Positions 7,572 through 23,053 of a DNA stretch of 24,225 bases are shown piece by piece. Position 1 is the stretch's first letter. Each line of letters starts with the position of its first letter. The position numbers were made by a program, and so were the translations under genes. Origin of the DNA: an uncultured Oscillospiraceae bacterium (lineage in GTDB: Bacteria > Bacillota > Clostridia > Oscillospirales > Oscillospiraceae); NCBI GenBank assembly GCA_934572445.1, contig CAKTLD010000018.1, positions 1 to 24,225 on the forward strand. Direction: 5' to 3'. Under the pieces are notes generated by a model. The model ran no database searches and was not told where the DNA came from. It saw only the letters and a program-made list of their open reading frames with translations.

Positions 7572-7955
7572 TCATTGCTGTTCGCCGCGGCTCCCCGGGG
7601 TAAACAACGCTTTGCGCAGCAGGGCCGCCAGCGCGGCAAGCTGCTCTTCCCCGCAGCACAAGCGAGACGGAGCATGCTCGCAGTCTCCCTCGCCGCGCAC
7701 AGCACGCAGCGCTGTCTCTGCATCGCCGACGGTCTTCTCCACCGCGCTTCTGGCGGCGTCAAAGCCCCGCAATACGCCAAGGCCGTTATAGAGCGCCAGG
7801 AGGCGCTCCTCATCCGACGTGCCCCTGCGTGCTTCTTCATAAAACCGCGCCGCCTTTGCCCATACCGGCGGAAGATCCTCCAGCTCCTCTGCGCGGACAT
7901 CCTCCGCCAACGCGCGGATCGCGGGGAGCATCCGCCGTGCCTGCTGTTCCGTCAT
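7572..7955 (-). CDS. Small unknown protein, translationally coupled to the response regulator
   Basis: A 127-aa, mostly helical, charged protein (MTEQQARRMLPAIRALAEDV at the start). I do not recognise a family. No signal peptide or membrane segment is seen. Its ATG overlaps the stop of the response regulator (ATGA, 4-nt overlap) and CGGAGGAAAACGT precedes it, so it is co-translated with the two-component genes. Residues C90, C99 and C100 are the only cysteines. It is the last gene before the terminator at 7451-7483. A role in modulating the regulator is possible but purely positional. Confidence 0.7.
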   Translation of the reverse strand: MTEQQARRMLPAIRALAEDVRAEELEDLPPVWAKAARFYEEARRGTSDEERLLALYNGLGVLRGFDAARSAVEKTVGDAETALRAVRGEGDCEHAPSRLCCGEEQLAALAALLRKALFTPGSRGEQQ

Positions 7956-8587
7956 ACGTTTTCCTCCGTTTCGATCCGAAAGATCATCTTTGGTCTGCCG
8001 ACCTTGCCGTATACGTTTTCCGCCAAGACGCGCCTGTCCCCCGCCAAATGCTGCAAATAGCGGTACGCCGTCTGTGTGGCAAGCCCTGTGCTGCGCGCGA
8101 TATCCTGCACGGTCATACCCTCTGGCGCGCCGCTCAGCGCCTGCAGAATGAGGTTGACTGTCGCGTCGCTCACGCCCTTTCGTCCGGACTCGCCGTAGAG
8201 ATTCACCCGCTCGCTTTCCATCAGGCGGATATGCAGCTTGATGCGCGAGATCAGGTCAAGCGCCTTAATGGGCTTGAGGGCAAAATCATTCGCTCCCGCC
8301 TGCAAAAAGGCATCCGCCACGGCCTGATCGTCGTCGATGGTAAAGACGATGATCGGCATACGGGCTGAACGCCGCCGCAGCTGCCGCACGCCCTCCACCC
8401 CGTTTGCACCGGGCAGATGGTAATCGATCAGCACGATATCGGCACGCTCCGCGTCGAACAGCGCAATGCCCTCCTCGGCGCTCTGTGCGAGCAGCGGCCG
8501 CCATCCCTGTGACTGGCACATCTGACTGAGCGCATAACGAATCTGACTGTCATCATCAATACACAAAACCGTCAAGGGGGCTGCCAT
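7952..8587 (-). CDS. Response regulator, CitB/DcuR-like
   Basis: A 211-aa two-component regulator. The receiver domain (about 5-118) has the acidic pair D11/D12, phospho-acceptor D55 (IVLIDYHLPG), T83 (VFTIDD) and K105 (ALKPIKA). The C-terminal part (about 145-205) is a winged helix of the type seen in the CitB/DcuR/MalR family, with the ending YGKVGRPKMIFRI. That family usually controls uptake and use of citrate or C4-dicarboxylates, which fits the two permeases encoded upstream. AAGGAG nine bases before the ATG supports the start. It follows the kinase gene after 15 bases. Confidence 0.9.
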   Translation of the reverse strand: MAAPLTVLCIDDDSQIRYALSQMCQSQGWRPLLAQSAEEGIALFDAERADIVLIDYHLPGANGVEGVRQLRRRSARMPIIVFTIDDDQAVADAFLQAGANDFALKPIKALDLISRIKLHIRLMESERVNLYGESGRKGVSDATVNLILQALSGAPEGMTVQDIARSTGLATQTAYRYLQHLAGDRRVLAENVYGKVGRPKMIFRIETEENV

Positions 8588-8602
8588 AGCACCGTTCTCC
8601 TT

Positions 8603-9979: not shown

Positions 9980-10009
9980 GCCGCTCCTCCTTTTCCCAAA
10001 AACGCCGAT

Positions 10010-10042
10010 CGTCCTGCGGGCGCGGTGCGCCGCGGCAGGACG
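10010..10042 (-). terminator. Hairpin between the peptidase gene and the histidine kinase, possible attenuator
   Basis: Outer arms CGTCCTGC/GCAGGACG enclose an inner stem CGCGG/CCGCG. On the minus strand five T follow about seven bases after the stem. This could reduce transcription from the transport/peptidase genes into the kinase and regulator genes. Confidence 0.45.
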
Positions 10043-10056
10043 TTCGACTGTCGCTC

Positions 10057-11013
10057 TCACCGGAGCTCCAGATATTGCAGCACATACTGCACCACATCAA
10101 GCTGATCACCCACGCGCCGCTCTACGGGGAAGCCGCGGAAGGTCTCCACCGTGATCGACGGGATCCCCAGCTCATTGGTGACGCTCGCGTTGATGCTGCC
10201 CTCCGGCCCCGGGCCGGTGTAGCCAAACTCATTGGAACAGATCGTACCGTCCTGCGTGGCAAAAAGCAGGTCAAAGAACATCTCCTCCATGCCGTCAAGC
10301 TTTGTGAAGATCAGCGTGCTGCCAAGAAAATCGCGTCCCTCGGTATAAACGATCGCCTCGTGCAGATCCAGCAGCAGGTCCGGCTGCTTATCACCGATAT
10401 CCTCAAAAAGCGCCGCGGCAAAGCGTTCCGCCTCGTTCCCGTTCGCGTCTCCCGGGAAGCTGCGGTTGAGATCCTGCCTGTCCGTCACATAGCGCGATAC
10501 GTTCCTTGCGCCGTTGGCGTTGGCCGGGGCAAGCACATACAGCTCACCGCTGCGGATCGTGGCACCGCGCAGGAGCTTGCCTGCATACCATGCCGCGATC
10601 TCATCGCCGTGGACGCCGGCAACAATATAGACCGTCTTTCCCGGCTGCTCCGCGGTGATATGATACACCGCCGCCTCCGTGATCTCCCCCGCAGTCAGCG
10701 TATAGGTTTCGACCTGCACAGGATACTGCTCGGCGAACAGGTCATCGCCGAAGTCGGAAAAAGCCATCGTATCGATGTCAATATTGCTCTCCGGCTCCTG
10801 CACACGGTAGCCATCCCACAGCATCTCCACGCCGCCGATGGTAACAGTCTGCCACTGTTCATCGGGCGCGGGGCTGGCGTCGCTGTCGGTATCCGCCTCA
10901 TTCGGCTGCTCAGATGTTTCGGACGTTTCGTCCGACCCGGCCTGCCGCGCGCCGCAGGCGGCGCACAGCAGAGCGAGGACCAGCAACATTAAAAATAGAA
11001 ACCGCTTTTTCAA
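10057..11013 (-). CDS. Lipoprotein AstE/AspA-like (M14-related) zinc metallohydrolase
   Basis: A 318-aa exported lipoprotein with lipobox LLCAAC (C20), then an acidic Ser/Thr linker to about residue 55. The catalytic domain carries the succinylglutamate desuccinylase/aspartoacylase zinc pattern: H135 and E138 (AGVHGDE), H218 (LDLHEA), the carboxylate-binding N183-R184 (DLNRSFPGD) and a candidate catalytic E290 (ITVETF). The family removes amide-linked acyl or amino acid groups, here outside the cell. The TTG start sits nine bases after GGAG, which lies within the last codons of the preceding gene; only six bases separate the two genes. It is shorter and more canonical (HGDE) than the two other copies in the locus. 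The substrate is unknown; gamma-glutamyl material is suggested by context. Confidence 0.85.
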   Translation of the reverse strand: MKKRFLFLMLLVLALLCAACGARQAGSDETSETSEQPNEADTDSDASPAPDEQWQTVTIGGVEMLWDGYRVQEPESNIDIDTMAFSDFGDDLFAEQYPVQVETYTLTAGEITEAAVYHITAEQPGKTVYIVAGVHGDEIAAWYAGKLLRGATIRSGELYVLAPANANGARNVSRYVTDRQDLNRSFPGDANGNEAERFAAALFEDIGDKQPDLLLDLHEAIVYTEGRDFLGSTLIFTKLDGMEEMFFDLLFATQDGTICSNEFGYTGPGPEGSINASVTNELGIPSITVETFRGFPVERRVGDQLDVVQYVLQYLELR

Positions 11014-11019
11014 TGTAAG

Positions 11020-12153
11020 TTACTCCTGCGGGTCGGCAAGATATGCGCCGATCCCGTTGTCAATGATCTCCTCATAAGACGGGAAGTCACCGAGATCAAT
11101 CACACCGGCGTCGCCGCTGTATTCCGCGGCGAACATGTTCAGGCAGGTGAGGTGGCGGGCGCAGCGTTCGCTGAGGCTGATGCCGGTGGACGGAAAGTCC
11201 ACGGTCAGCGCGCCGTAGCCGTCAGCGCGGGTGTAGAACTTGTCCTCGCCGTCCACTACCAGCTCGCTGCTCATTTTACCATGCAGACGGCCCTGAGAAG
11301 CATTAGCCGTCTCCATCAGCAGCGCCAGCGTGTCGGTATAGTCTCCCAGCTCGCGGTGCGTCAGACCATGCAGGTTGGTTGGGGAGGCCTCGACCGAGAT
11401 CTGCATCTCATCCTCCACATCCCACAGGCACAGGTTTGCCAGCTCCAGCGCGCGCTCATGCGCGACGATAGCGTTGACCGTCGTGTACTCCGGAGAGGCT
11501 TCGTGCAGATCGGCCGTAATGGTCACGTCGTTTTCCTTGATGAATTCGGTGAGGGCATAGGCCACGCGCTCGGTAAAGGTACCATCGGCACGACCGGGAT
11601 AGGCGCGGTTGATGTTGCGCGTCTCGCTGCCGGAAAGGTGCTGTCCGGACGCCGCGTGAACGTAGACCTCGCTGTCCGGCCACTGATCAATGGGGTTGGT
11701 CGCGCGTGAACCAAAACGGAACCAGCGTGTGCCGTTTTCCGTCTCGATGGTGAAGCGCATTGGCGCTCCCTCCTGCGGATCGGTGCAGGTAAAGGCGCTG
11801 TTGTTCGTACGCGGGATGACATACAGCACGCCGCTTGCCGGCTTGCAGGATTCGATCAGCGCCACAGCGGAAATGAAGCCGGACGGTTCATTGGGATGCG
11901 TGCCGCCGAGCACCAGCATACTTGCGCCCGGCACGCCGGAATCCAGCACATAGATCTCCGTATCGCCCGCCGTTCCTTCCAGAGAGGGCAGGTATTCGCT
12001 CAGCATTTTTATTTCCGTCACGCCCTCACCGGCGTAGATCGGCTCCTGTTCTTTCGCCGAGCGGAAGATCGTGCCGAGATACGCAGTCATACCGATGACA
12101 AACGCGCACAGCAGGATCGCTGTGATCACATTGCGGGAAAGCTTTTTCTTCAT
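11020..12153 (-). CDS. Membrane-anchored AstE/M14-like metallopeptidase (paralogue 1)
   Basis: A 377-aa protein with an N-terminal signal anchor (residues 8-28) and no lipobox, so the catalytic domain faces outward. The zinc-site pattern is H86 and E89 (LGGTHPNE) and H217 (ADLHEASPE), with N182-R183 (RNINRAYPG) and a candidate catalytic E281 (LLMETAN). THPNE replaces the usual GxHGxE. The gene is a clear paralogue of the one at 14390-15538: both share DSGVPG, LGGTHPNE, NPIDQWPD or NPVDQWPD, and the region around HGLTHRELGD. GGGAGGGG before the ATG supports the start. It follows the 49-aa membrane protein gene after 13 bases. It probably trims or releases amino acids from an extracellular polymer or conjugate; no substrate is proven. 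Confidence 0.85.
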   Translation of the reverse strand: MKKKLSRNVITAILLCAFVIGMTAYLGTIFRSAKEQEPIYAGEGVTEIKMLSEYLPSLEGTAGDTEIYVLDSGVPGASMLVLGGTHPNEPSGFISAVALIESCKPASGVLYVIPRTNNSAFTCTDPQEGAPMRFTIETENGTRWFRFGSRATNPIDQWPDSEVYVHAASGQHLSGSETRNINRAYPGRADGTFTERVAYALTEFIKENDVTITADLHEASPEYTTVNAIVAHERALELANLCLWDVEDEMQISVEASPTNLHGLTHRELGDYTDTLALLMETANASQGRLHGKMSSELVVDGEDKFYTRADGYGALTVDFPSTGISLSERCARHLTCLNMFAAEYSGDAGVIDLGDFPSYEEIIDNGIGAYLADPQE

Positions 12154-12166
12154 CTTCGTCCCCTCC

Positions 12167-12316: not shown

Positions 12317-12331
12317 AGTTGTCCCCTCCTA

Positions 12332-13609
12332 TCAAGCCGTCAGGAAGCTCAGCGCCGAGGAGTTGAGCATGCACAGCAGTCCCACCAGCACGCACACCAC
12401 GAAAGGCACGACGCAGTTTTTCAGCACGGGGCGGTACTTCAGCCCGACGATCTGCGCGGCATAGTTGCCCGCCAGCGCCGTCGGCGGCATCAGATCGCCA
12501 AGGCAGCACAGGAACGAAAGCATGCAGCACAGCACGATGTCGTTGTGTCCGCCCATCTGCAGCATGACCAGCAGGAACGGCACGCCCATAACGGACGCCG
12601 CACCGTAGGAGCTGATCGCGCCGAAGGCGGGCATGATCGTGCAGGAGAACACATAGAGCATCACCATGCCAAGGCTCAGGCAGCTGACAACGATCCAGCC
12701 GCGCGCGCCCACAAGCGTCAGCACCTGGATGAACATGCCGACGCCCATCAGCTTGCCGAGGACCGGGATCGTGGTGTCCATCGCCTGCAGGGACTTCTCC
12801 CAGAAATTGATCTTGCGGCCGGTAAACAGGCCGATTACGGCGGAAATGAGGAAGATGAGGCAGGTTCCCAGCTGCGGCAGCGAGGGAAACAGCTTCGTCA
12901 CGACCAGCAGCACCGCCAGCACGATAATCGGAATGTATAGCTTAAAGCCGTACTTCTTGCCCGTTTCGGTGTCAAGATTCTTGCACAGCTCGTCGATATC
13001 AAGGTCTTTGCAGTAACGAAGGCCCAGAAACAGCACGGTAAAAATCGCGCAGGGGATCGTCACAAGGAACAGGGGCCCTTCAAAGCCGATATAGGGCATA
13101 TCCACGCCGCCAGCGATCAGCATTGCAGGGATGTTGACCGGGGGCGCCGCCATGCCCATGATCGCGCCGATGGCAATGATCGCACCGGCGCGTTCCTTCG
13201 GAATACCGATCAGCAGCAGCACCGGCGCCACCAGCGCACCGGCGCTGAGCACCGCCGCGGTGGACGAACCGGTGATCATACCCGGAAACATGACCACAAA
13301 CATCAGCAGGATCAGCATCAGCGCAGGACGCTTGTAAAAGTGGGTCACGATGGCCGTATTGAGCGCGGCCAGCGCACCGGACTCCTGGATCACCGTCATG
13401 AACAGCATGGCGGTAGAGATGATGAGCATGGTATCGACATAGGTGAACGTTCCCTCAAACAGGTGCCGCAGAGGGATTCCCTCCCCGCCGACCAGCGCGC
13501 CGACGACCGCGCCGACGACCATGGAGATGCTCACAGGCAGCTTCAGCAGCAGGTTTGCCAGCAGAAAAGCGCCCAGCATCGATAAAAGGCAGATTAGTTC
13601 AATATCCAA
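12332..13609 (-). CDS. Polytopic permease of the DctM/ion-transporter type (paralogue 1)
   Basis: A 425-aa membrane protein with about ten to twelve hydrophobic segments. Two conserved loops mark it: PGMITGSSTAAV (109-120) and MGMAAPPVNIPAM (151-163). They recall the re-entrant loops of DctM-type and related carboxylate permeases of the ion transporter superfamily. The predicted substrate is an organic anion such as glutamate, a dicarboxylate or an acyl-amino acid. The TTG start is supported by AAGGAG nine bases upstream. No DctP/DctQ genes accompany it; instead a 49-aa protein and a peptidase follow directly. A paralogue lies at 15715-16986. The precise family assignment is uncertain. Confidence 0.8.
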   Translation of the reverse strand: MDIELICLLSMLGAFLLANLLLKLPVSISMVVGAVVGALVGGEGIPLRHLFEGTFTYVDTMLIISTAMLFMTVIQESGALAALNTAIVTHFYKRPALMLILLMFVVMFPGMITGSSTAAVLSAGALVAPVLLLIGIPKERAGAIIAIGAIMGMAAPPVNIPAMLIAGGVDMPYIGFEGPLFLVTIPCAIFTVLFLGLRYCKDLDIDELCKNLDTETGKKYGFKLYIPIIVLAVLLVVTKLFPSLPQLGTCLIFLISAVIGLFTGRKINFWEKSLQAMDTTIPVLGKLMGVGMFIQVLTLVGARGWIVVSCLSLGMVMLYVFSCTIMPAFGAISSYGAASVMGVPFLLVMLQMGGHNDIVLCCMLSFLCCLGDLMPPTALAGNYAAQIVGLKYRPVLKNCVVPFVVCVLVGLLCMLNSSALSFLTA

Positions 13610-13686: not shown

Positions 13687-14355
13687 TTACTTGGTGAACA
13701 GGTCGGTGAACACGCTCAGAGTATCCTTGGTGGAGTAGATCAGGGTGATGGGCTTGTTGTTCTCCTCGGCATAGTTGGTGAACTTATAGTCGAAGTTGGC
13801 ATCCTCCTTCAGAACGATATAGCTGGCTTCGGCCATAACCATATCGGCAAAGGTGTCGGACAGAGAGCCGCGGCGGGAGGAACCGCCGATATGGCAGCAG
13901 ATGACCTCAACATCGTTGTCCTGGATCGCCTTGATGATCGCTTCGGCACGGGCGGTCTCGTCCGCCTCGGAGATACCGGCGGCGCCGAGGCCCTTGGAGC
14001 TGGCGCCAACGGCGATAACGACGGTCTTATAGTTCGGGATCACGCTGGCATCGGCGGTCGCCTCGTAGGTATAGGTCACGCCCGCCTTCTTCATGACGGT
14101 GTCGAGCATGGCCGCATCAGTGCTCTGGCCGAAGGAGGTCACGAGGATCGGTTCTTCGTACAGGCTCTTATCGATCTCGCCGATGGTGACGATGCTGTTG
14201 TCCGCGCTGGTCTGCATGGTAAATTCAACTTCCTTATTGGGGTCGTACTCCGCGTCGTTGCTGCCGGTGGACGGGGTAGTGTCCTGCTTTTCACCGCAGG
14301 CGGCAAGCGCCAGCACCATAATCGCGGCAAGCAGAAATGCAAGGAACTTTTTCAT
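13687..14355 (-). CDS. DUF6305-like lipoprotein
   Basis: A 222-aa exported lipoprotein with lipobox LALAAC (C20). The mature part contains LVTSFGQSTDAAML, then YKTVVIAVGASSKGLGAAG, and VEVICCHIGGSSRRGSLSD, a pattern I associate with the DUF6305 family of unknown function. The Gly-rich SSKGLGAAG loop and IGGSSRRG suggest a nucleotide- or anion-binding alpha/beta fold, facing outside. GGAGG precedes the ATG. It follows the AstE-like gene after 34 bases and is followed by a strong hairpin, a layout like that of abundant binding proteins. A role as solute-binding or accessory protein of the permeases is inference. Confidence 0.75.
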   Translation of the reverse strand: MKKFLAFLLAAIMVLALAACGEKQDTTPSTGSNDAEYDPNKEVEFTMQTSADNSIVTIGEIDKSLYEEPILVTSFGQSTDAAMLDTVMKKAGVTYTYEATADASVIPNYKTVVIAVGASSKGLGAAGISEADETARAEAIIKAIQDNDVEVICCHIGGSSRRGSLSDTFADMVMAEASYIVLKEDANFDYKFTNYAEENNKPITLIYSTKDTLSVFTDLFTK

Positions 14356-14389: not shown

Positions 14390-15538
14390 TCAATCGATCG
14401 GCTTGAGCAGATTCTCAAGCCCGGTATTGACAAGCTCTTCATAGCCGCCGAAGCCCTCAATGACGATGCCCTGCTCGGGGCGCGCCTCCGTGTAGGACTC
14501 GGCGAGGTACTTGATGCACAGCATCTGGCGGGCAACACGCTCGATGAGCGGATAGCCGTCCTCCGGCACGTCAAAATAGATGTAACCGGCCTTGTGTGCC
14601 TCCAGATAGTTCGGCTCGTTGCCGTTGAGGATGAGATCGTCATCCATCTTGCCGTGCATCGAACCCATCGAGGGGTTATAGGTCTCCATCAGCGTCATCA
14701 TGGACGAGGTATTGTCGCCCAGGCTGCGATGGGACAGGCCATAGGAATTTTTGCCGGAATACTCCGCGCGCATATCGAGCCCTTCCAGCTGCATCAGCAG
14801 CGCCATATTGCTGGCAATGGACATCGCACCGGCATTGTCCGCCTTTTCGTTGACCATCGTGCAGTCCAGATACAGGAACTCCGGCGATCCCTCGTGCATG
14901 TCCATCGTCAGGCTGACGTTCTCCTCGTTGATGAGGTTGAAAATGCCCGCGCACACCTTCTCGGTCAGCACGCCGTTCTCGTTGCCGTAATACAGGCGGT
15001 TGACGTTGCGGATCTCCGCACTCTCCGTGCCGACGAGTTTGCGGCCGGACGTGCCCTCATAGTAGCTGCGGTCAGGCCACTGATCCACGGGATTCGTCAG
15101 GCGGTTGCCCACGCGGAACGTGCGCACGCTGCCGTCAGAAAGCGTGATATCAAAGAAATCCTGCATTCCGTCGAGCGGAGAAGTATGCGTAAAGCCGCTT
15201 TTATTCGTCCACGGGATCACGAACACGCGCCCCTGTGTGACATTCATGTTTTCGATCAGGCAGACCGCGGACACCAGCCCCGCCGATTCATTGGGGTGCG
15301 TTCCGCCGAGGACGAGCATCGTACCGCCCGGCACGCCGCTGTCAAAAACGTATATCTCCGTGTCGCTGTCGGTGCCCTTCAGCCCCGCGCAGTAATCGGA
15401 GAGGAGCTTCACCTCTGTGAGCGCTTCCGTCTCCACGATCTTCTCCTGCTGATGCATGGCAAGAAAGTCGCGCGAGGCGGGGATGGCAAACAGCAGCGCA
15501 AGCAGGATCACCAGAGCATTTTTCCAGTATTGCTTCAT
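14390..15538 (-). CDS. Membrane-anchored AstE/M14-like metallopeptidase (paralogue 2)
   Basis: A 382-aa protein with an N-terminal hydrophobic anchor (residues 7-20) and an extracellular catalytic domain. The predicted zinc ligands are H81 and E84 (LGGTHPNE) and H215 (MDMHEGSPE), with N180-R181 (RNVNRLYYG) in the carboxylate-binding position and a candidate catalytic E285 (TLMETYN). The ATG at 15538 has a GGGGAG ribosome site six bases upstream; a longer frame to 15583 would run into the small upstream gene. It belongs to the first permease/48-aa protein/peptidase module and is paralogous to the protein at 11020-12153. The DIT..DGSVRTFRVGNRLTNPVDQWPD stretch, shared in part with its paralogue, is absent from ordinary AstE enzymes as far as I know, suggesting a distinct subfamily. 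Confidence 0.85.
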   Translation of the reverse strand: MKQYWKNALVILLALLFAIPASRDFLAMHQQEKIVETEALTEVKLLSDYCAGLKGTDSDTEIYVFDSGVPGGTMLVLGGTHPNESAGLVSAVCLIENMNVTQGRVFVIPWTNKSGFTHTSPLDGMQDFFDITLSDGSVRTFRVGNRLTNPVDQWPDRSYYEGTSGRKLVGTESAEIRNVNRLYYGNENGVLTEKVCAGIFNLINEENVSLTMDMHEGSPEFLYLDCTMVNEKADNAGAMSIASNMALLMQLEGLDMRAEYSGKNSYGLSHRSLGDNTSSMMTLMETYNPSMGSMHGKMDDDLILNGNEPNYLEAHKAGYIYFDVPEDGYPLIERVARQMLCIKYLAESYTEARPEQGIVIEGFGGYEELVNTGLENLLKPID

Positions 15539-15554: not shown

Positions 15555-15701
15555 CTACTTGATGTGCAGCGCGCGCAGCGCAAAGGTCACAAACACCACT
15601 GCAAGGCAGATCAGCTCACCCATCGGCCGCTTTTTCAGCAGATTGTACCCAAGCAGCAGCGCGAGCACCGCAATGATAATGAAATAAATGACTTCTATCA
15701 T
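15555..15701 (-). CDS. 48-aa two-helix membrane protein, copy 2
   Basis: It starts MIEVIYFIIIAVLALLLGYN, then has a charged turn LLKKRPMGE and a second hydrophobic helix ending ALRALHIK. AAGGAGG lies eight bases before the ATG. It sits 13 bases after permease 2 and 16 bases before the metallopeptidase gene, the same position as its paralogue at 12167-12316. The conserved features are V/I-IY near the start, an Asn at 20, paired Lys at the turn and LRxLxIK at the end. I do not recognise the family. It is probably a membrane partner of the permease. Confidence 0.85.
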   Translation of the reverse strand: MIEVIYFIIIAVLALLLGYNLLKKRPMGELICLAVVFVTFALRALHIK

Positions 15702-15714
15702 ATCCGTGCCCTCC

Positions 15715-16986
15715 TTACAGGATCAGTGCCGTCATGCTGTCGCCAAAGACGACCATCACGACACCCATTGCAAGCAGAAGCGCCGCCGGCAGCAGCAGAT
15801 GCTTCACCGTGCCCTTCCAGCTCACGTCCGTCAGTCCCAGCGCGTTCACCGTATCGCCGACCAGCCCGCCGCGCATCGCCAGAAGATATGCGATACCGAG
15901 CGACGAAGCAACGCCCGTTACGATCACGGTGTTTGCAAGCCAGCCGATCGGAAACACAGCATAGGCCGCAAGGAAGCCCGGAAGGGGCGCGCCGAGGAAC
16001 AGTCCGATCACGATGCTGAGCGCCATCAGCACGAGCATCACCACCGGTATCTCGATCCCGAGGATCTTCAGGCTGAAATAGCCGCGGATACCGGTCATCG
16101 ACGTGACCTCGATAAAGCTGCCCAGCGCAAACATCATCGCCACCGGCACCGCAGCATCCATCAGTCCGGCAGATACCGTATCCAGCGCGGTACGGGCACC
16201 GCAGCGGCCGAGGATAAGCAGCAGAATAACGGCGATCGTATAGACCAGCACATTGCCGCCGATATAGACCACCGAGGACAGCAGCCCCTCGACCAGCAGT
16301 GCAGCCACCGTCAGCGCGGCCACGATCAGCGGCACGCGGCAGGGCTCGACCTTGCGCGCCTCCGCTGCAAAGCCCAACGTATCACGGCAGACAAGCACAT
16401 ATACCACAAACGCCGGCAGCGAAAGCACCAGCAGCGGCAGGAAAAATCCGACATAGGGCGTCGGCAGCACGCTGCCCGCGCCGTTTGCGGCGATCATCGC
16501 CGGCATACAGTTTGGCGGCAGCATCATACCGAGGAACGCGCCGATAACAACCGTGCGCGCGATCTTGTCCTGCGCGACACCGGCGTCCTTCATGCGCTTG
16601 CCCACAAGCGCGCCCGTGGTGACCACGCTCGCCGTCGCAAAGCCGGTGAGCATACCCGGCAGGGCGATCAGCAGCGCCATGCACAGCGCCTTCAGCGTGC
16701 GGTTTTTCACGCCGAGGATCTTTTCCAGCAGTGTATCGAACGCGCCGGTCTTTTCCAGCACGCGCACGAACACCGCCGCGCACACCACACTCAGCGCGGC
16801 GTCCAGAAAGCCGAAGGGACCTTCGACGATCTCGCGGAAGCGCACGCCCATTCCCGCCGTCAGGCTGCCGGCCACCGCGGCGGCAAGCAGCACGGCGACT
16901 GCGTATTTCTTATCGTTTTTCGTTGCAATAAAGCCGACGACAGAGATCCCGAGCATCACGATCAGGATCACCAGTTCTTCTCTCAT
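15715..16986 (-). CDS. Polytopic permease of the DctM/ion-transporter type (paralogue 2)
   Basis: A 423-aa membrane protein with ten or more hydrophobic segments. It shares with permease 1 the two loop motifs PGMLTGFATASV (110-121) and LGMMLPPNCMPAM (152-164) and the overall length, but is otherwise well diverged. It is likely a secondary transporter for an organic anion; glutamate or gamma-glutamyl products are suggested by neighbours. AGGAG eight bases before the ATG supports the start. It follows the gamma-glutamyltransferase gene after 58 bases containing a GC-rich hairpin, and precedes the 48-aa membrane protein gene. The exact family is uncertain. Confidence 0.8.
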   Translation of the reverse strand: MREELVILIVMLGISVVGFIATKNDKKYAVAVLLAAAVAGSLTAGMGVRFREIVEGPFGFLDAALSVVCAAVFVRVLEKTGAFDTLLEKILGVKNRTLKALCMALLIALPGMLTGFATASVVTTGALVGKRMKDAGVAQDKIARTVVIGAFLGMMLPPNCMPAMIAANGAGSVLPTPYVGFFLPLLVLSLPAFVVYVLVCRDTLGFAAEARKVEPCRVPLIVAALTVAALLVEGLLSSVVYIGGNVLVYTIAVILLLILGRCGARTALDTVSAGLMDAAVPVAMMFALGSFIEVTSMTGIRGYFSLKILGIEIPVVMLVLMALSIVIGLFLGAPLPGFLAAYAVFPIGWLANTVIVTGVASSLGIAYLLAMRGGLVGDTVNALGLTDVSWKGTVKHLLLPAALLLAMGVVMVVFGDSMTALIL

Positions 16987-17009: not shown

Positions 17010-17031
17010 GCCGGGGGCGAAAGCCCCCGGC
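17010..17031 (-). promoter_or_regulatory. Intercistronic hairpin between ggt and permease 2
   Basis: A 9-bp GC stem GCCGGGGGC/GCCCCCGGC closes a TTTC tetraloop on the minus strand. No T run follows; the permease ribosome site does. It is more likely an mRNA-stabilising or processing structure than a terminator. Confidence 0.5.
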
Positions 17032-17044
17032 AGTTCAGGCGTTT

Positions 17045-18853
17045 TTAATAGGCAGCCGCGCCGTAAAGACGGCGGTAATCGCCCAGAGCATAGAAGCGTC
17101 CGTCATCGCCGACCTCAACGCCGGCAAGGCAGCCGACGTGCGCGCCGTACTCGCTGCTCTCCTCATCGATCTCAAAGCCCATTGCGGCGAGCTGATCGAG
17201 CACCGACTGACCGTAGCGTCCCTCGATGGTCAGCGTCTTGCTGATGCCGTCGCGGAACGAGCGCGGGGCAAGGATCGCCTCGGCGACGTTCATGTCAAAG
17301 TCCACATAGTTCACAATAGCGTTGAGCGCGGCGGGAACGAGCGCCCAGTTGCCCGGGGAACCGATGGCCAGAACAGGCTTGCCGTCTTCGCCGGCAAGGA
17401 TGGTCGGACACATGGTAGAGCGAACGCGGATATAGGGCATGAGCTGGTTGACGCGGGCGCTCATGGTATCATTCAGGTTGCCGAGGTGCGCGCTGAAGAC
17501 AAAGCCCGTACCGGGCACTGCCACAGCGGAGCCAAAGTTGATGCCGTTGGTGTTGGTCGTGGAGACAGCGTTGCCCATACTGTCCATCACGGCCATGTGG
17601 GTCGTGCCGCCCTGATCGGGCGTGCAGTCGGCAAGCACCTTCTCGCCCGTGGCGGAAAGGCTGACATCCAGCTTACCGGCCTTGGCGACCTTAATGCGCT
17701 CGCCGACCGTGACGCTCTTGGCGCGCTCCTCACCGTATTCCTTGGAGATCATCTCATCCACAGGCAGATTGTAATAATCAGGGTCGCCCATGTAGGCCAC
17801 GCCGTCCTGATAGGCCAGCGCGTAGGCGTCGTTGAGGATCTGCACCGTCTCGGCGCTGTCGTGGCCGTAACCGGCAAGATCAAACTGCTCGGCAATGTTG
17901 AGCATCTCCAGCAGCGCCACGCCGCCGTTGGAGGGACCGCCGGCAGTATAGACGGTGTAACCGCGATAGGTCGTGGAGACCGGCTCGCGGATCACGCTGT
18001 GATACTGCGCAAAGTCCTCGTGCGTCAGCACGCCGCCGACGCTCTGGATCCAATCGACCATTTTGTCGGTAAAGTCGCTGTCGTAGAAGCCCTGGATGCC
18101 TTCGTCGGCGATCAGCTCAAGCGTATCGGCAAGGTCGTTGTTGGTGATGAGGTCGCCCTCGTTCCACAAAAAGCCCTCGTCGGTATAGAGGTTCATCGTA
18201 TATTCGTAGGCGGACAGATTCTCATAGCGGCCCTCGATGTTGCTGTTCCAGCGGGAGGTCACGGGGAAGCCGCTGCGTGCAAGATCGATCACAGGCTGCA
18301 GCACCTCGCGCGGGGTCATCGTGCCGTACTTCTCCAGCGCGGTGAGCGTGCCATGCACGACACCGGGGATGGCGATGGCCTGCGGGGAAGGCGGGTTCTC
18401 AGACGTAGATGTATCGAGCGTCCCCGGAATGGCCGCACCGGGTGCCTGCGTCATGTACTCGATGACGACATACTCGTCGCTCTCGGCGAGGTAAACGACC
18501 ATCTGACCGGCACCGCCGATACCGGAGGCCGCCGGTTCCAGCATGCCGACGGCATAGATCATGGCAACGGCCGCATCCACTGCATTGCCGCCCTTTTTCA
18601 GGATATCCATAGCGATCTCAGCGGCCAGCGGGCTTGCGCAGGCGGCGGCGCCGTTTTCGCCGACAGCGCCGGTGCCGAAGGTGTCGCCCTCATAGGCGGG
18701 CGTAACGACAACCTCCGGTTCGTTCGTATCATCCGGCTGCTCCACCGGCGGCGTAGCAGGAGTGGGATCAGGCTCCGTTCCCTGTGCGCCGCAGCCAGCC
18801 AGAAGGCCCAGACACATCACGAGGGTCAGGAGAACAGCGGTCAGTCTTTTCAC
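17045..18853 (-). CDS. ggt: Lipoprotein gamma-glutamyltransferase (GGT/CapD-like)
   Basis: A 602-aa N-terminal-nucleophile enzyme that cleaves or transfers gamma-glutamyl groups, anchored outside the cell by lipobox LLAGC (C21) and a Pro-rich linker. Autocleavage is expected before T417 (QGGTTHMAVMDSMGNAVS), giving a large and a small subunit. Oxyanion and substrate elements are present in LGNLNDTMS and in AIGSPGN. The canonical Arg of the REMAP motif, which binds the substrate alpha-carboxylate in E. coli GGT, is replaced: the aligned segment reads EYMTQAP with M134. SS becomes ST in RSTMCP, and GSPGG becomes GSPGN. The substrate preference may therefore differ from glutathione-type GGT, for example a polymer as for CapD. 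The GTG start has AGGAGG eight bases upstream. It is second in the gene train divergent from pgsBCW. Confidence 0.92.
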   Translation of the reverse strand: MKRLTAVLLTLVMCLGLLAGCGAQGTEPDPTPATPPVEQPDDTNEPEVVVTPAYEGDTFGTGAVGENGAAACASPLAAEIAMDILKKGGNAVDAAVAMIYAVGMLEPAASGIGGAGQMVVYLAESDEYVVIEYMTQAPGAAIPGTLDTSTSENPPSPQAIAIPGVVHGTLTALEKYGTMTPREVLQPVIDLARSGFPVTSRWNSNIEGRYENLSAYEYTMNLYTDEGFLWNEGDLITNNDLADTLELIADEGIQGFYDSDFTDKMVDWIQSVGGVLTHEDFAQYHSVIREPVSTTYRGYTVYTAGGPSNGGVALLEMLNIAEQFDLAGYGHDSAETVQILNDAYALAYQDGVAYMGDPDYYNLPVDEMISKEYGEERAKSVTVGERIKVAKAGKLDVSLSATGEKVLADCTPDQGGTTHMAVMDSMGNAVSTTNTNGINFGSAVAVPGTGFVFSAHLGNLNDTMSARVNQLMPYIRVRSTMCPTILAGEDGKPVLAIGSPGNWALVPAALNAIVNYVDFDMNVAEAILAPRSFRDGISKTLTIEGRYGQSVLDQLAAMGFEIDEESSEYGAHVGCLAGVEVGDDGRFYALGDYRRLYGAAAY

Positions 18854-18884
18854 AAAAAGATCCTCCTTTTATTTGCTTAATGCC

Positions 18885-18919
18885 CGTGCCCCATCCCCGC
18901 TCAGCAGGGACGGGGCACG
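18885..18919 (-). promoter_or_regulatory. Intercistronic hairpin between the first lipoprotein gene and ggt
   Basis: Arms CGTGCCCCATCCC and GGGACGGGGCACG pair over 13 positions with one mismatch around a 9-nt loop. No T run follows. Placed after the first gene of the train, it may protect that transcript end or attenuate downstream genes. Confidence 0.5.
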
Positions 18920-18953
18920 AAAGTTTCACATCACTTTTCTTCGCGGCGCCTTA

Positions 18954-20168
18954 TCAGCCGGCAACCGCAACGATCTGCGCGAGATCCGTGGTCAGATCCA
19001 TCGCCTTGACCTCATCAGCCGTCTTGGTCTCGGTCGTACCGTCGACATAGGTCAGCTCATAGTTGGCCGTCTCGACCATGCCGGTGGCGGCAAACGCATC
19101 GGCGACCGTCCGGCCGTCGTCGGGAACATAGACGAACGCATCCTCAGCGAAGATGTAGTAGCCCGCATTGGTCACGCCGGCATCCTTGGCCTGCGTTCTG
19201 CCGAGGGTGAAATAATCCTTGTTGTCACCCTTTTCATTGGGACCCTGATAGGCAATGTACTTGGCGGCGAAATCGGCATAGCTCTCATCCTGAGAATAGC
19301 CGTCCTTGTAGGAAACGACCTTCACGGTATCGCAGGCGGCGATATCATACTTGGCCAGCAGATCCGCAACAGCCCAGGCGCTGTAATACACGCCCGCGCG
19401 GTTCTCGCTGTAGGGAGCCTCGGTCTTGTAGACGCCCTCAGCGTTGAGCGCAACGTTGATCTTGCTCACGCCCTCGGCGGCAGGCTCGGAGTCCTTGGTC
19501 ATGCCGGAGGGAACGATGTAGCGGATGTCGGCAAGGCCGGAATCGGGATACTCAATAGAAGTGGCATTCACGCCGCCGTCCTCAGTGTAGTAGATGCTGC
19601 ACTTGTCGAGGTCGGCCTTGCTGATGGTCTCGCTGTAGCCGTCGGCGCAGATAAAGTCATACGCGGAGGCGTCAGCCATGCCGACATACTCGAACAGCTC
19701 GGGGATCGCCCAGCCTTCCTCCTGCATCAGCAGAATGACTTCGGGACCAACGATGCAGTAGCCCTTATACTTCACGTCCTGGGATTCCTTCTGCGCACGG
19801 CCGACGAACAGGTCGTAGTCGTACTCAGGATTGTCCTGCTGGAAGCTGATGAACTTATTGCGGAAGGTCGCCAGATCGCACTCATCGGCATAGAAGTCGG
19901 TGTAGGCGACGGTGTAGACCGTGGTGTCATCCGCCGGAGTGAACCAGAAGTTGTTGTCGATCAGCTCGCCGAGGCTGTACGCCTTGTGGTACTCCTTGGC
20001 ATTGTAGCACTGGTCGCTCGTTGCAAGACCGTCGAACGCATTGTTCATAACGATCAGGCGCTGCATGCCCTCAAGTGCAGGCGCGGGCGCGGGCTCATCC
20101 TTCTGTCCGCAGGCCGCAAGGCCAAGCGTGAGGATCAGGGCAAGGGATAATGCAAGTAGCTTTTTCAT
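18954..20168 (-). CDS. Unknown lipoprotein with internal domain duplication, first gene of the divergent train
   Basis: A 404-aa exported lipoprotein with lipobox LGLAAC (C20) and a short Pro/Ala linker. I do not recognise a named family. Two repeats of about 125 residues are visible, about 63-190 and 263-391. Each has an AYS/AWA..LL start, a VAYTDFYADE or VVSYKDGYSQDE segment, an FISFQ or YIAYQ strand, an LFVGRAQ or TLGRTQ loop, a GYCIVGPEV or GYYIFAEDA strand and an AYDFICADGYSETIS or NYELTYVDGTTETKT end. AGGAGG six bases before the ATG at 20168 sets the start; a longer frame to 20261 would cover the promoter. Being first, exported and followed by a hairpin, it is probably abundant; binding of PGA or its fragments is inference. 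Confidence 0.8.
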   Translation of the reverse strand: MKKLLALSLALILTLGLAACGQKDEPAPAPALEGMQRLIVMNNAFDGLATSDQCYNAKEYHKAYSLGELIDNNFWFTPADDTTVYTVAYTDFYADECDLATFRNKFISFQQDNPEYDYDLFVGRAQKESQDVKYKGYCIVGPEVILLMQEEGWAIPELFEYVGMADASAYDFICADGYSETISKADLDKCSIYYTEDGGVNATSIEYPDSGLADIRYIVPSGMTKDSEPAAEGVSKINVALNAEGVYKTEAPYSENRAGVYYSAWAVADLLAKYDIAACDTVKVVSYKDGYSQDESYADFAAKYIAYQGPNEKGDNKDYFTLGRTQAKDAGVTNAGYYIFAEDAFVYVPDDGRTVADAFAATGMVETANYELTYVDGTTETKTADEVKAMDLTTDLAQIVAVAG

Positions 20169-20189
20169 AAGAATCCTCCTGTCTTTTTT

Positions 20190-20218
20190 GTTTCGCAGCG
20201 ATACGGCAGCAGCGAAAC
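20190..20218 (-). promoter_or_regulatory. Leader hairpin before the first gene of the divergent train
   Basis: GTTTCGC and GCGAAAC (20190-20196 and 20212-20218) form a 7-bp stem with a 15-nt loop in the untranslated leader, just before the AGGAGG site. It may influence translation or mRNA stability. I could not match it to a known riboswitch. Confidence 0.4.
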
Positions 20219-20259
20219 CAGACGTTTCTTTTGTCACTTCTGTCGTATTCGGCGGTTTC

Positions 20260-20288
20260 ATTTTACGAGAAAATATGTGGTTTGTCTA
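20260..20288 (-). promoter_or_regulatory. Promoter of the 13-gene minus-strand train
   Basis: On the minus strand TAGACA (20283-20288) and TAAAAT (20260-20265) are exactly 17 bases apart, each five of six to consensus. The leader would be about 85 nt. It faces away from the pgsB promoter about 75 bases to the right. Confidence 0.7.
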
Positions 20289-20362
20289 CCCTTGCGGGCC
20301 GGAGAAATATGTATAAAAAATCCCTTTCGCCCTCTTTGCGCGCTTTTTATGCCATGCAAGAC

Positions 20363-20391
20363 TTGTCCGGAAAACTTTCATGTGCTATCAT
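20363..20391 (+). promoter_or_regulatory. Promoter of pgsB-pgsC-pgsW
   Basis: TTGTCC (20363-20368), a 17-base spacer and TATCAT (20386-20391) lie directly before pgsB. The start point would be near 20398, leaving a leader of only about 17 nt. Confidence 0.6.
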
Positions 20392-20414
20392 AGGGCCATC
20401 TTTCAGACAAGGGG

Positions 20415-21548
20415 GTGCCTCCCACGGAACGCTGTCTGCTCCTTCTCTGCACCGTCTGGCTCGCGCTGCTCGTTTTCGAGCGGGCCCGTGCACGGCGCGA
20501 CCGCGCGAAGCTTGAACATGTGGTCCATGTCAACGGCACGCGCGGGAAATCCACTGTCACGCGCCTGATCGCCGCAGGACTGCGGGCGGGCGGGTGGCGT
20601 ACCGCGTGCAAGACCACCGGCACCGATCCCATTTACAGTGGCGTTGACAGCAGCGAGCGGCCGATCCGCCGCGTCGCACCGTCAAACATCCGCGAGCAGC
20701 TCCGCATCCTGCACCGCGCCGCCGATGAGGGCGCGCAGGTCCTCGTCATCGAATGTATGGCCGTTCAGCCGGAGCTGCAGCGTGTCTCCCAGCAGGAGAT
20801 GCTGCGCGGGGATATCGGTGTCATCACCAATGTCCGCCTCGATCACACGGATGTAATGGGCGCCACACTGCCCGAGATCGCATCCTCCCTGTGCAGCACC
20901 GTTCCCGATCACGGCGCGCTTTTCACCGCCGAGGACCGGCTCACGCAGCAGCTTGCCGAGACTGCGCAGGCGCGGCAGTGCCGCTTTTTCCCCGCCCGTC
21001 CCGACGGCAGCGAGCCGGACTTTGACTTTGCCGAAAACATCGCTCTGGCGCTGGCCGTCTGCGCGTACCTCGGCGTGCCGCGCGAAACGGCGCTGGAGGG
21101 GATGCGTCATTTTTCCCGCGACCCCTATGCGCTCTCACTCTGGCGGATCGGAAACGGCGTTTTTGTCAACGCGCTCTCCATCAACGACCCCGAATCCACG
21201 GCGTGCGTATATGCCGACGTGCGCGGCAGGCTGGAGCAGAACATCGCGCACACGGTTTTTCTTTTTAACAACCGCATGGATCGCGGCGCACGCACGCACG
21301 ACATGGTAAGCGTCGCTCTTAAGCTGAAGCCCGACGAGGTATGGCTGCTCGGCAGCGGACAGGACTATTTTCGGCGCAGCCTGCTGCGCGATGGTTTTTC
21401 AGGCGCGATCATCCCCCTCGGCAGGCATTTCGAGAGCCGGCTGCGCACGCTTCCCGCGGGCACGCTGGTCTTCGCTGCCGGCAACATCGCCAATGACGGC
21501 CGCCGCCTGATGGAATTTGCCGCAAAGGAGGGCTCTCCCCTTGTATGA
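20415..21548 (+). CDS. pgsB: Poly-gamma-glutamate synthase subunit PgsB/CapB
   Basis: A 377-aa ATP-dependent amide ligase of the Mur-ligase type that links glutamates through the gamma-carboxyl at the membrane. An N-terminal hydrophobic segment (about 7-21) is followed by the nucleotide loop NGTRGKST (40-47), KTTGTD (66-71), ECMAVQPE (113-120), NVRLDHTDVMG (139-149) and NNRMDRGART, all diagnostic of PgsB. The length matches the B. subtilis protein (about 393 aa). The start is uncertain: the GTG at 20415 directly abuts an AAGGGG stretch with no proper spacing, but no other ATG, GTG or TTG precedes the membrane segment. The end overlaps pgsC by 8 bases. Neighbouring ggt and peptidase genes support a PGA role. 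Confidence 0.93.
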   Translation: MPPTERCLLLLCTVWLALLVFERARARRDRAKLEHVVHVNGTRGKSTVTRLIAAGLRAGGWRTACKTTGTDPIYSGVDSSERPIRRVAPSNIREQLRILHRAADEGAQVLVIECMAVQPELQRVSQQEMLRGDIGVITNVRLDHTDVMGATLPEIASSLCSTVPDHGALFTAEDRLTQQLAETAQARQCRFFPARPDGSEPDFDFAENIALALAVCAYLGVPRETALEGMRHFSRDPYALSLWRIGNGVFVNALSINDPESTACVYADVRGRLEQNIAHTVFLFNNRMDRGARTHDMVSVALKLKPDEVWLLGSGQDYFRRSLLRDGFSGAIIPLGRHFESRLRTLPAGTLVFAAGNIANDGRRLMEFAAKEGSPLV

Positions 21549-21969
21549 CCAGATCATTTTGCTTGGCGTAATCGTCAGCGTACTCTTTTTTGAATGGACG
21601 GGGCTTTCTCCCGCCGGACTGATCGTCCCAGGCTACTTCGTTTTGAGCCTTCATTCGCCGATGCGCATCGTCTGTACACTCGCCGTATCGCTGCTGGCGG
21701 CGTTTGCCGTGCGCCTTCTCAGCCGCGCTGCCATTCTCTACGGACGCCGTCGTTTTGCCGCGCTCATCCTGCTCGCCGCCGCTATACAGTCGCTCATATC
21801 GCTCTCCGGTATGCTGCCGTTCCGCGCCGATGTCATCGGTATCCTGATCCCCGGCATCATCGCCCGTGATTTTGACCGTCAGGGCATCGTCAAGTCTCTG
21901 CTGAGCCTTGCCGTTGTCACAGCGGTGCTCGCGCTGCTGCTCACGCTTTTCGGCTACCCCGTACTGTGA
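21541..21969 (+). CDS. pgsC: Poly-gamma-glutamate synthase membrane subunit PgsC/CapC
   Basis: A 142-aa polytopic membrane protein, close to the usual about 149 aa of PgsC. Diagnostic stretches are FFEWTGLSPAGLIVPGYFVL near the start, AAILYGRRRFAALIL in the middle and IGILIPGIIARDFDRQGI near the end. It forms the membrane complex with PgsB for polymer synthesis and export. The TTG at 21541 is chosen because AAGGAGG lies nine bases upstream inside pgsB and because the resulting MYDQIILLG start matches the family; it overlaps the pgsB stop, so translation is coupled. Confidence 0.93.
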   Translation: MYDQIILLGVIVSVLFFEWTGLSPAGLIVPGYFVLSLHSPMRIVCTLAVSLLAAFAVRLLSRAAILYGRRRFAALILLAAAIQSLISLSGMLPFRADVIGILIPGIIARDFDRQGIVKSLLSLAVVTAVLALLLTLFGYPVL

Positions 21970-21979
21970 GGTGGCGGCA

Positions 21980-23053
21980 ATGAAGCAAAAACTGACAGCA
22001 CTGCTGCTCGCGCTCGCGCTCAGTCTCGGCGGGCTTGCCGCCGCATACTGCGGCGCTCCCGTGCGGAAAAGCAGCGATTATGCCATCAAATATGCCGCCG
22101 CGGAACAAATGGCACGCTGCATGGCGCAGATCCGCACTTATAAGGAGGCGCTCTCCCTTCCGCTCAGCGAGGAGGATCGGCACAGCACCGGAATGATCGG
22201 TGATTATCTGACCGATATCACCACCACGCTCGGCTCTCCCGAAGCTAAGCGCAGCACCGCAAATCCCGACATGGCCGCGCTCGTCGTCACACTGCTGCGC
22301 GAGGCCGGCATACGAAGCGGCGATACGATCGGCGCGGGATTTTCCGGCTCCTTTCCCGCGCTTGATCTCGCGCTGCTCTGTGCCTGCGATGCAATGGGCG
22401 TCAGCTGCGTCTATATTGCATCCATTGGCGCGTCCACCTACGGTGCCAATCAGCCGGAGCTGACGCTGCCGGATATGCTCTGCCGTCTTGTGCAGGACGG
22501 ATACCTCAGCACGCTCCCTGCCGCCATCACGGCCGGCGGCGCATACGACATCGGCCAGGATATGGACGCCGCCGTCCTCGCGCAGATCCTCGCGCGGCTG
22601 GAAGGGTACGGCATCCCCATCGTCAGCGAGGGCATCTATTCGCAGAATATTGCATGGCGCATGGCTCTGTATGCAGAAAACGGACCGATCTCCTGCTTTG
22701 TCGGCATCGGCGGCAATGTCACAACGCTTGGACTGGACGGCACTACGCTGCGCCAGGGCGTCTCCCGCCCCGACAGTATTCGGACTGTTTCCGCGCGCAG
22801 CGGTCTGCTCGACCGTTACAACGCCTCAGGCTTGCCTGTGATCCAGCTGCTGAACGTCAAAAAGCTTTTGACCGACTACGGTCTGCCGTTTGATCCCGAT
22901 GCTCTGCCGGAACCCGGCACAAGCGCGATCTACTACGAAACGAAGCCGCGTCTCCTGCCCGCTGCTCTCTCGCTTTTCGCGTCGCTCGCCGTGCTGATCT
23001 CCCGCGCATCTTCTCGCAGAGGGCCGTCTGCACCGCGCGGAAAACGCCGGTAA
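21980..23053 (+). CDS. pgsW: Poly-gamma-glutamate system protein, PgsW type
   Basis: A 357-aa protein with an N-terminal signal or anchor (about 5-22) and a C-terminal hydrophobic segment (about 320-340) followed by a basic tail. The middle has GAGFSGSFPALDLALL, IASIGASTYGANQPELT, EGIYSQNIAWRMAL and FVGIGGNVTTLG, which I associate with the family annotated as poly-gamma-glutamate system protein. Its biochemical role is unknown; it is found with pgsB and pgsC in anaerobes lacking a normal PgsA. GAGGTGG just before the ATG at 21980 supports the start, ten bases after pgsC. No CapA/PgsA-like gene is present in the window. Confidence 0.85.
   Translation: MKQKLTALLLALALSLGGLAAAYCGAPVRKSSDYAIKYAAAEQMARCMAQIRTYKEALSLPLSEEDRHSTGMIGDYLTDITTTLGSPEAKRSTANPDMAALVVTLLREAGIRSGDTIGAGFSGSFPALDLALLCACDAMGVSCVYIASIGASTYGANQPELTLPDMLCRLVQDGYLSTLPAAITAGGAYDIGQDMDAAVLAQILARLEGYGIPIVSEGIYSQNIAWRMALYAENGPISCFVGIGGNVTTLGLDGTTLRQGVSRPDSIRTVSARSGLLDRYNASGLPVIQLLNVKKLLTDYGLPFDPDALPEPGTSAIYYETKPRLLPAALSLFASLAVLISRASSRRGPSAPRGKRR

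What the first reader, a model, noticed from the sequence alone, without database searches (positions are those of the whole stretch)
7572..23053. Divergent poly-gamma-glutamate synthesis and putative turnover/uptake locus
pgsB-pgsC-pgsW read right from one promoter, and a 13-gene train reads left from another promoter about 75 bases away. The train encodes a lipoprotein GGT, three exported AstE/M14-like hydrolases, two carboxylate-type permeases, two exported lipoproteins of unknown role and a CitB-like two-component system. PgsB, PgsC, PgsW-type and GGT identities rest on motifs in the sequence. That the left arm cuts, imports and senses gamma-glutamyl products is inference. If correct, this is a complete make-store-reuse system for a glutamate polymer in a gut anaerobe, unlike the simple cap/pgs operons of bacilli.
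Basis: partly seen in the sequence, partly recalled or inferred. Interest (0 to 1): 0.82.

Follow-up and report, generated by a model that had tools for sequence, protein, structure and literature searches.

The report
Polyglutamate synthesis with swappable recycling cassette
A bacterium carries the genes to build a glutamate polymer right beside a set of surface enzymes, importers and a sensor that probably cut the polymer up and take it back in, and this recycling set appears to be passed around as a unit, in a version whose main cutting enzyme has an altered active site.

Summary
In detail: pgsB-pgsC-pgsW read right, 13 ORFs read left from a facing promoter-like site. The left train holds a three-gene module twice: DctM/CitMHS-type permease, 48-49 aa membrane protein, exported AstE-like zinc hydrolase. 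Corrections: (1) the divergent layout is the exception; relatives are one-way. (2) The window's GGT keeps the catalytic Thr but lacks the residues that hold the gamma-glutamyl donor (R114, N411, Q430, D433), as do all six full-length GGTs read in five two-module loci. (3) The GGT-permease-AstE arm of those loci is one clade while their pgsBCW genes are scattered (p-AU 1e-8), so the arm probably moved as a unit. DUF6305 with kinase and regulator recurs beside ABC importers, which suggests sensing. PgsW seems to stand in for CapA. No product or activity is shown; 'make, store, reuse' is likely, not proved.

The parts
20415..21548 (+). pgsB, amide ligase of the poly-gamma-glutamate synthase
   Evidence: TIGR04012 318.6 bits, cut-off 222.7; Mur_ligase_M
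21517..21969 (+). pgsC, membrane partner
   Evidence: TIGR04011 111.9 bits; PF14102 CapC 103.9
21980..23053 (+). pgsW, 'poly-gamma-glutamate system protein'; two membrane helices around an a/b domain taken to be extracytoplasmic
   Evidence: TIGR04332 327.5 bits; AlphaFold2 pLDDT 94, helices 2-27 and 329-349 of the submitted chain; topology is my reading of the C-terminal positive charges
20169..20414 (.). shared intergenic with facing promoter-like sites
18954..20168 (-). LPP, lipoprotein of unknown role
   Evidence: no Pfam family; 104 homologues, of which 4 carry an organism name, all Spirochaetales groups
17045..18853 (-). GGT-family lipoprotein, donor-site-altered subfamily
   Evidence: TIGR00066 405.5 bits; residues at E. 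coli 114/391/411/430/433 = M/T/G/H/N
15715..16986 (-). permease 1 (module 1)
   Evidence: no Pfam hit itself; clade with permease 1 of L013, L015, L024, L029, 100/100
15555..15701 (-). 48 aa membrane protein (module 1)
   Evidence: alignment A4
14390..15538 (-). membrane-anchored AstE-like zinc hydrolase (module 1)
   Evidence: PF24827 23.2 bits, just under the cut-off of 25; metal-site and Glu positions invariant in A5
13687..14355 (-). DUF6305 lipoprotein, probable sensor or binding protein
   Evidence: PF19823 158.3 bits; model pLDDT 89.4
12332..13609 (-). permease 2, DctM-like (module 2)
   Evidence: PF06808 55 bits
12167..12316 (-). 49 aa membrane protein (module 2)
   Evidence: A4
11020..12153 (-). 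membrane-anchored AstE-like zinc hydrolase (module 2)
   Evidence: PF24827 28.0 bits; A5
10057..11013 (-). short AstE-like lipoprotein (AstE3)
   Evidence: PF24827 66.7 bits; 42% identical over 234 columns to the C-terminal half of the PgsW fusion P0027
8603..10060 (-). sensor histidine kinase (likely start 9979, my reading)
   Evidence: HisKA, HATPase_c
7952..8587 (-). response regulator, CitB/DpiA-like HTH
   Evidence: Response_reg 85.2, HTH_64 28.2 bits, cut-off 27
7572..7955 (-). small ORF overlapping the regulator; membership uncertain
   Evidence: no relatives in 79 loci

Best explanation
This is a glutamate-polymer locus with its own recycling arm. PgsB and PgsC polymerise glutamate at the membrane; PgsW, with a domain taken to be extracytoplasmic, takes the place that CapA/PgsA has in bacilli. 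The polymer is held at or released from the surface. A GGT-family hydrolase and three AstE-like zinc hydrolases on the outer face shorten it; two carboxylate-type permeases, each with a 48-49 aa membrane partner, take up the pieces. DUF6305 with the kinase and regulator senses a product or substrate and sets expression of the two facing operons. The arm GGT-permease-AstE is an exchangeable cassette; the window carries the two-module version, whose GGT has a changed donor site and therefore probably acts as a hydrolase on a substrate without a free gamma-glutamyl end (inside the chain, or a blocked or D end). Shown: genes, order, linkage, residue changes, tree conflict. Inferred: polymer, cutting, uptake, sensing.
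For: Family hits. 34 of 49 Bacillota PgsW loci have at least three of five core partners; 0 of 30 other loci do. AstE-long in 3 of 391 and 3 of 101 genomes, the same three as PgsW each time. Small membrane protein in 15 of 15 PgsW genomes tested. PgsW-AstE3 fusions in eight of 120 listed clusters, read in four. 40 of 40 full-length pgs-linked GGTs lack the E. coli lid loop, the trait of polymer-degrading Bacillus GGTs (PMC8062742, passages). H86, E89, R183, H217 and E281 invariant in 24 of 24 long AstE (roles recalled). In L038 a C69 peptidase directly precedes DUF6305, where other loci have GGT. DUF6305 lies just before a homologous kinase in 14 of 14 non-pgs loci with room. CapA had no match in 5 of 15 PgsW genomes and lay on other contigs than pgsB in the rest.
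Against: No product, activity or expression was measured. The window's GGT lacks the donor-site residues; a B. licheniformis R109M mutant kept only 4% hydrolysis (PMC8062742). Four PgsW loci with full flanks lack every partner (L036, L037, L039, L043); L023 also does, its genome has them elsewhere. DUF6305 occurs without PgsW in 15 of 18 genomes. Named homologues of the window's GGT and LPP are Spirochaetales, where pgs was not tested. Permease 1 matches no Pfam family. LPP is not part of the conserved set.
Confidence: 0.55

Rival explanations
1. The left arm remodels or anchors the polymer at the surface (trimming chain length, linking it to the wall, as CapD does) and the permeases only recover by-products; reuse is not its purpose.
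For: GGT and AstE3 carry lipobox signal sequences (my reading); a GGT relative anchors polyglutamate in one bacillus (PMC8062742, passages).
Against: Large-chain matches: 221 bits to a GGT (3whq_A), 134 to CapD (3g9k_L); best full precursor 4y23, a GGT, 279. Two permeases and a sensor argue for uptake. R109M and D433N mutants of other GGTs lost transpeptidation (PMC8062742).
Confidence: 0.15
2. The left arm is a scavenging system for N-acyl or gamma-glutamyl compounds from host, diet or peptidoglycan, and its neighbourhood to pgsBCW is due to shared regulation by glutamate status, not to the polymer.
For: Named homologues of window GGT and LPP are Spirochaetales; DUF6305-kinase-regulator occurs with ABC importers without pgs; GGT donor site altered; in G007 and G008 a partner module also lies away from pgsBCW.
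Against: In the samples of 391 and 101 genomes the long AstE was not found without PgsW (at most 5 candidates per genome were scored); PgsW-AstE3 fusions.
Confidence: 0.17
3. PgsB and PgsC here join a monomer other than glutamate, or a modified one, so the whole locus handles another gamma- or side-chain-linked polymer.
For: GGT donor site in the two-module loci no longer fits a free gamma-glutamyl group; CapA missing, PgsW instead.
Against: PgsB and PgsC pass curated equivalog cut-offs; both GGT types sit beside pgsBCW of close kinship, e.g. L015 as sister of L010, L017-L020 and L026.
Confidence: 0.1

Closest known systems
pgsBCA(E) / capBCADE operons of Bacillus (poly-gamma-glutamate)
   Same: PgsB and PgsC homologues over curated cut-offs; a GGT-family enzyme; extracellular polymer expected
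   Different: PgsW and no CapA; zinc hydrolases, permeases, DUF6305 and a two-component system in the same locus; no PgdS-type domain among the window proteins given to Pfam
Bacillus GGT-mediated polyglutamate degradation (B. subtilis natto, B. licheniformis; PMC8062742, passages)
   Same: GGT without lid loop; catalytic Thr kept; 34 of 40 pgs-linked GGTs keep R114
   Different: Bacillus ggt lies elsewhere (recalled); the window copy has M/G/H/N in the donor site
TRAP and CitMHS/DctM secondary transporters
   Same: permease 2 matches DctM (55 bits); DctM matches 15 and CitMHS 10 of 21 permeases
   Different: no DctP or DctQ found; instead a 48-49 aa membrane protein and a membrane-anchored hydrolase follow the permease
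DUF6305 - kinase - regulator - DUF3798 ABC importer clusters of Clostridia (L107-L122, L126)
   Same: DUF6305, kinase and regulator homologous and adjacent
   Different: ABC importer with DUF3798 and SBP_bac_5 lipoproteins (annotated in L126); no GGT, AstE or pgs found by profile

Membership tests
Poly-gamma-glutamate synthase (PgsBC core) | PgsB and PgsC homologues adjacent | tested here: met
Poly-gamma-glutamate synthase, Bacillus type (PgsBCA) | PgsA/CapA (PF09587) in the operon | tested here: not met
   no PF09587 among the 20 window proteins scanned; in relatives no match in 5 of 15 genomes and other contigs than pgsB in the other 10
Poly-gamma-glutamate synthase (PgsBC core) | product is gamma-linked polyglutamate | not testable with these tools
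   needs chemistry
Gamma-glutamyltransferase family (PF01019/TIGR00066) | family score over cut-off and catalytic Thr | tested here: met
   405.5 bits; T391 equivalent in 40 of 40
Canonical GGT | donor-site residues R114, N/E411, Q/E430, D433, S462-S463 | tested here: not met
   M, G, H, N, S-T in the window; G411, H430, N433 in 120 of 120 best homologues, M114 in 83, L114 in 35, gap in 2
CapD | anchoring transpeptidase of a capsule | tested here: inconclusive
   large chains: 134 bits to CapD, 221 to a GGT; residues not compared, no sequence fetched
AstE/AspA (M14-like) zinc hydrolases | HxxE...H metal site and catalytic Glu | tested here: met
   H86, E89, H217, E281 and R183 invariant, N182 nearly so, in 24 rows; roles of residues recalled; PF24827 over cut-off in 2 of 3 window proteins
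TRAP transporter | DctM permease | tested here: met
   permease 2 only, 55 bits; DctM in 15 of 21 permeases
TRAP transporter | DctP and DctQ partners | tested here: not met
   no such family among the 20 window proteins scanned
CitA/CitB-type two-component system | regulator with DpiA-like HTH | tested here: met
   HTH_64 28.2 bits, cut-off 27; HTH_IclR scores higher, 34.7
CitA/CitB-type two-component system | kinase with extracytoplasmic PAS/Cache sensor domain | tested here: not met
   only HisKA and HATPase_c found by Pfam

The most novel reading that the evidence does not exclude
Glutamate-polymer synthesis and its recycling are separable, exchangeable halves in anaerobic Clostridia. The recycling cassette is a new kind of extracellular polymer-reuse device (GGT-like hydrolase + membrane-anchored zinc hydrolase + permease with a 48 aa partner), and its two-module version uses a GGT subfamily whose altered donor site cuts the chain from within or from a blocked or D-glutamyl end, so that swapping the cassette changes how the same polymer can be digested.
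Probability: 0.27. Interest if true: 0.76.

Novelty: new variant of a known kind. Interest (0 to 1): 0.62.

Why it matters
Polyglutamate is studied mainly in bacilli, as capsule or industrial polymer. A conserved locus in anaerobic Clostridia that joins synthesis, surface digestion, uptake and sensing would point to a nitrogen and carbon reserve outside the cell, give PgsW and DUF6305 a testable role (one search found no paper with DUF6305, no relevant one with pgsW, one paper with the PgsW family name, seen as a listing only), and make a GGT subfamily with a rebuilt donor site available for substrate work. The apparent exchange of the digestion arm between synthesis backbones could show whether polymer and digester are matched.

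Tried and rejected

The window's own whole genome is not held, so nothing outside the 24 kb of this organism could be tested.

Full report
What is there. The right arm is PgsB, PgsC and PgsW, each over the curated cut-off of its own NCBIfam model. The left arm is a co-directional train of 13 ORFs with gaps of at most about 100 bases (hand arithmetic): LPP, GGT, permease 1, a 48 aa membrane protein, AstE1, DUF6305, permease 2, a 49 aa membrane protein, AstE2, AstE3, kinase, regulator, and a small ORF without relatives. Facing promoter-like sites lie 75 bases apart.

Is the association real? One genome scan with a PgsW alignment gave 79 loci (119 relatives were found and the best 80 kept). I took 49 as the Bacillota set (L001-L046, L051, L073, L076; a few of these records name no phylum) and 30 as the rest. 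With bit-score floors set by me, in the 49 PgsB is found in 48, GGT in 31, DUF6305 in 34, permease in 34, the small membrane protein in 33, long AstE in 34, AstE3 in 20, kinase in 27, regulator in 30; 34 have at least three of the five core partners (GGT, DUF6305, permease, small protein, long AstE), 39 have any partner, 10 have none. Of the ten, five (L005, L007, L016, L032, L040) have the contig end within 1.1 kb of PgsW on one side; L036, L037, L039 and L043 (Lachnospiraceae, two PgsW each) lack partners within the flanks, and L023 has them elsewhere in its genome. In the 30 other loci none has three core partners and three have any. By a strict distance rule the permease is followed by the small protein and AstE in 30 of 33 cases; two of the three misses (L019, L020) fail my cut-off by one or two bases because the small ORF was started upstream, the third (L042) is a fragment at a contig end with overlapping ORF calls.

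Reverse test. In a sample of 391 genomes of the class of O. valericigenes, PgsW was found in 3 (one, G038, a partial match of 69.7 bits at a contig end, below the cut-off) and long AstE in 3, the same three (at most 5 candidates per genome were scored). In 101 genomes of the family of G003 again 3 and 3, the same. Leaving out the two centre genomes, which were chosen for PgsW, the chance of such agreement is about 1 in 75,855 and 1 in 4,950 (hand arithmetic; relatedness ignored). DUF6305 was in 18 of 391, the three PgsW genomes among them; 15 of the 18 lack PgsW. All 18 PgsW genomes checked by handle have DUF6305, and all 15 checked have the small membrane protein.

What the other 15 DUF6305 genomes show. 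I read 16 loci of those 15 genomes plus a second locus of Lutispora (L107-L122, L126). In 14 of the 16 (13 genomes) there is room after DUF6305, and in all 14 a kinase homologous to the window's follows by position (some cut or in pieces, 78 to 330 bits); the regulator is found after it in 11, L113 and L117 end before it, and L121 shows none by this profile. In L126, the one such locus whose neighbours I gave to Pfam, the order is SBP_bac_5 lipoprotein, DUF6305, kinase, regulator, DUF3798 lipoprotein, ABC ATPase, two permeases; L112 reads alike (its DUF3798). DUF6305, kinase and regulator are thus a recurrent trio beside importers. I read it as sensing; that is inference.

Fusion evidence. Eight of the 120 PgsW clusters listed (424 matched) are 596-631 residues long where the length was read or listed near 600, with the AstE domain; I read four, and the C-terminal half of P0027 is 42% identical to the window's AstE3 over 234 columns.

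The GGT. Of 46 ORFs labelled GGT in the loci, 39 were long enough and were aligned with the window's and E. coli Ggt. The catalytic Thr is in 40 of 40; 40 of 40 lack the E. coli lid loop. A review (PMC8062742, passages) states that lid-less Bacillus GGTs act on polyglutamate, that R114 contacts the alpha-carboxylate and D433 the alpha-amino group of the donor, that B. licheniformis R109M keeps 4% hydrolysis and no transpeptidation, and that D433N brings in glutaryl-cephalosporin acylase activity; it also says that the Arg is replaced by Ser in GGTs of some extremophiles. R114 is kept in 34 of 40; the exceptions are the window, both GGTs of L013, L015, L024 (all M114, G411, H430, N433, T463) and L021 (Y114, G411, T430). 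Reading the full Lutispora locus added a sixth of the M type (L125). These five loci (window, L013, L015, L024, L029/L125) are those with permease 1 and a readable GGT; L042, which also has two modules, is cut before its GGT. No one-module locus has the full pattern, but L021 is part-way, L051 has N433 with R114, and one of two GGTs in G007 and in G008 has K114 and N433. The 120 best homologues of the window's GGT all have G411, H430 and N433, with M114 in 83, L114 in 35 and a gap in 2: a subfamily of its own. The search drew on residues 230-600 only and listed 120 of 2959.

Trees. Permease 1 (5 rows) and AstE1 (6 rows) of the two-module loci form clades at 100/100. In a tree of permease 2 + AstE + DUF6305 the six two-module loci plus L021 form a clade at 100 (SH-aLRT), the six alone at 88, not starred; in the GGT tree the five with GGT form a clade at 100 (quick method). 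In the tree of PgsB+C+W (49 rows) the same six are scattered, the window standing with L003, L008 and L016 at 100/99, and one clade is rejected (p-AU 1.2e-8); kinase+regulator likewise (p-AU 1.7e-4, five rows, three of which hold the regulator alone). Long branches (L042, L051, L046) weaken single placements. The simplest reading is that GGT-to-AstE2 moved as a unit between synthesis backbones, and that in the window it came to lie head to head with pgsB. Repeated loss is the alternative and was not modelled.

PgsW and CapA. PF09587 had no match in 5 of 15 PgsW genomes, one of them complete by its title (G002); nine of the other ten pass the cut-off, and in all ten the matches were on other contigs than the full-length pgsB. 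Several genomes are drafts, so absence is weak there. PgsW, with two membrane helices around a domain taken to be extracytoplasmic, probably stands in for CapA; that is inference.

How it most likely works is given in Best explanation; its steps from polymer to uptake are not shown by any experiment. Literature: one paper holds the words 'poly-gamma-glutamate system protein' (PMC5362203, search listing only); none holds DUF6305; 'pgsW' occurs only in papers with unrelated titles (listing). A recent paper proposes polyglutamate made by CapB, CapC and CapA in anaerobic Cloacimonadota (PMC13082233, passages), a different gene set, and a survey calls polyglutamate capsules rare but present in most phyla (PMC5542703, passages). 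The library lacks most subscription journals.

Noticed in passing
window 72-3252: Tyrosine recombinase (72-1574), a low-GC gene without a Pfam family over cut-off (1649-2998) and a tRNA-Pro (3177-3252, minus strand) whose 3' end faces them: may be one end of an integrated element.
   Followed up: no
window 6416-7456: Choloylglycine (bile salt) hydrolase family protein, NF038245 478 bits, a hint of a gut habitat.
   Followed up: no
window 3986-4684: Hexapeptide acetyltransferase resembling Vat streptogramin acetyltransferases, 263 bits against a cut-off of 300.
   Followed up: no
window 23320-23934: L-2-amino-thiazoline-4-carboxylic acid hydrolase family protein (PF14196) downstream of pgsW.
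   Followed up: no
L156 7300-17000: DUF6305-permease-small protein-AstE present twice in tandem with nearly equal profile scores: a recent duplication of the unit.
   Followed up: partly
L107-L122, L126: Clostridial cluster with DUF6305, kinase and regulator; in L126 with SBP_bac_5, DUF3798 and an ABC importer, substrate unknown.
   Followed up: partly
P0121-P0224 and P0225-P0344: LPP and window-type GGT share seven longest-contig lengths (11959, 19032, 18179, 15722, 9566, 305327, 7983) between the two hit lists (matched by eye), so they are probably linked on other contigs too.
   Followed up: no
L038 2859-4694: Peptidase family C69 (PF03577 224 bits) directly before DUF6305 where other loci have GGT; L041, L044 and L046 hold ORFs of the same BLAST cluster, not scanned.
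   Followed up: partly
L036, L037, L039, L043, L032: Lachnospiraceae loci with two PgsW copies and no recycling arm found, next to a peptidase-like and a Maf-like gene (names by my reading).
   Followed up: no
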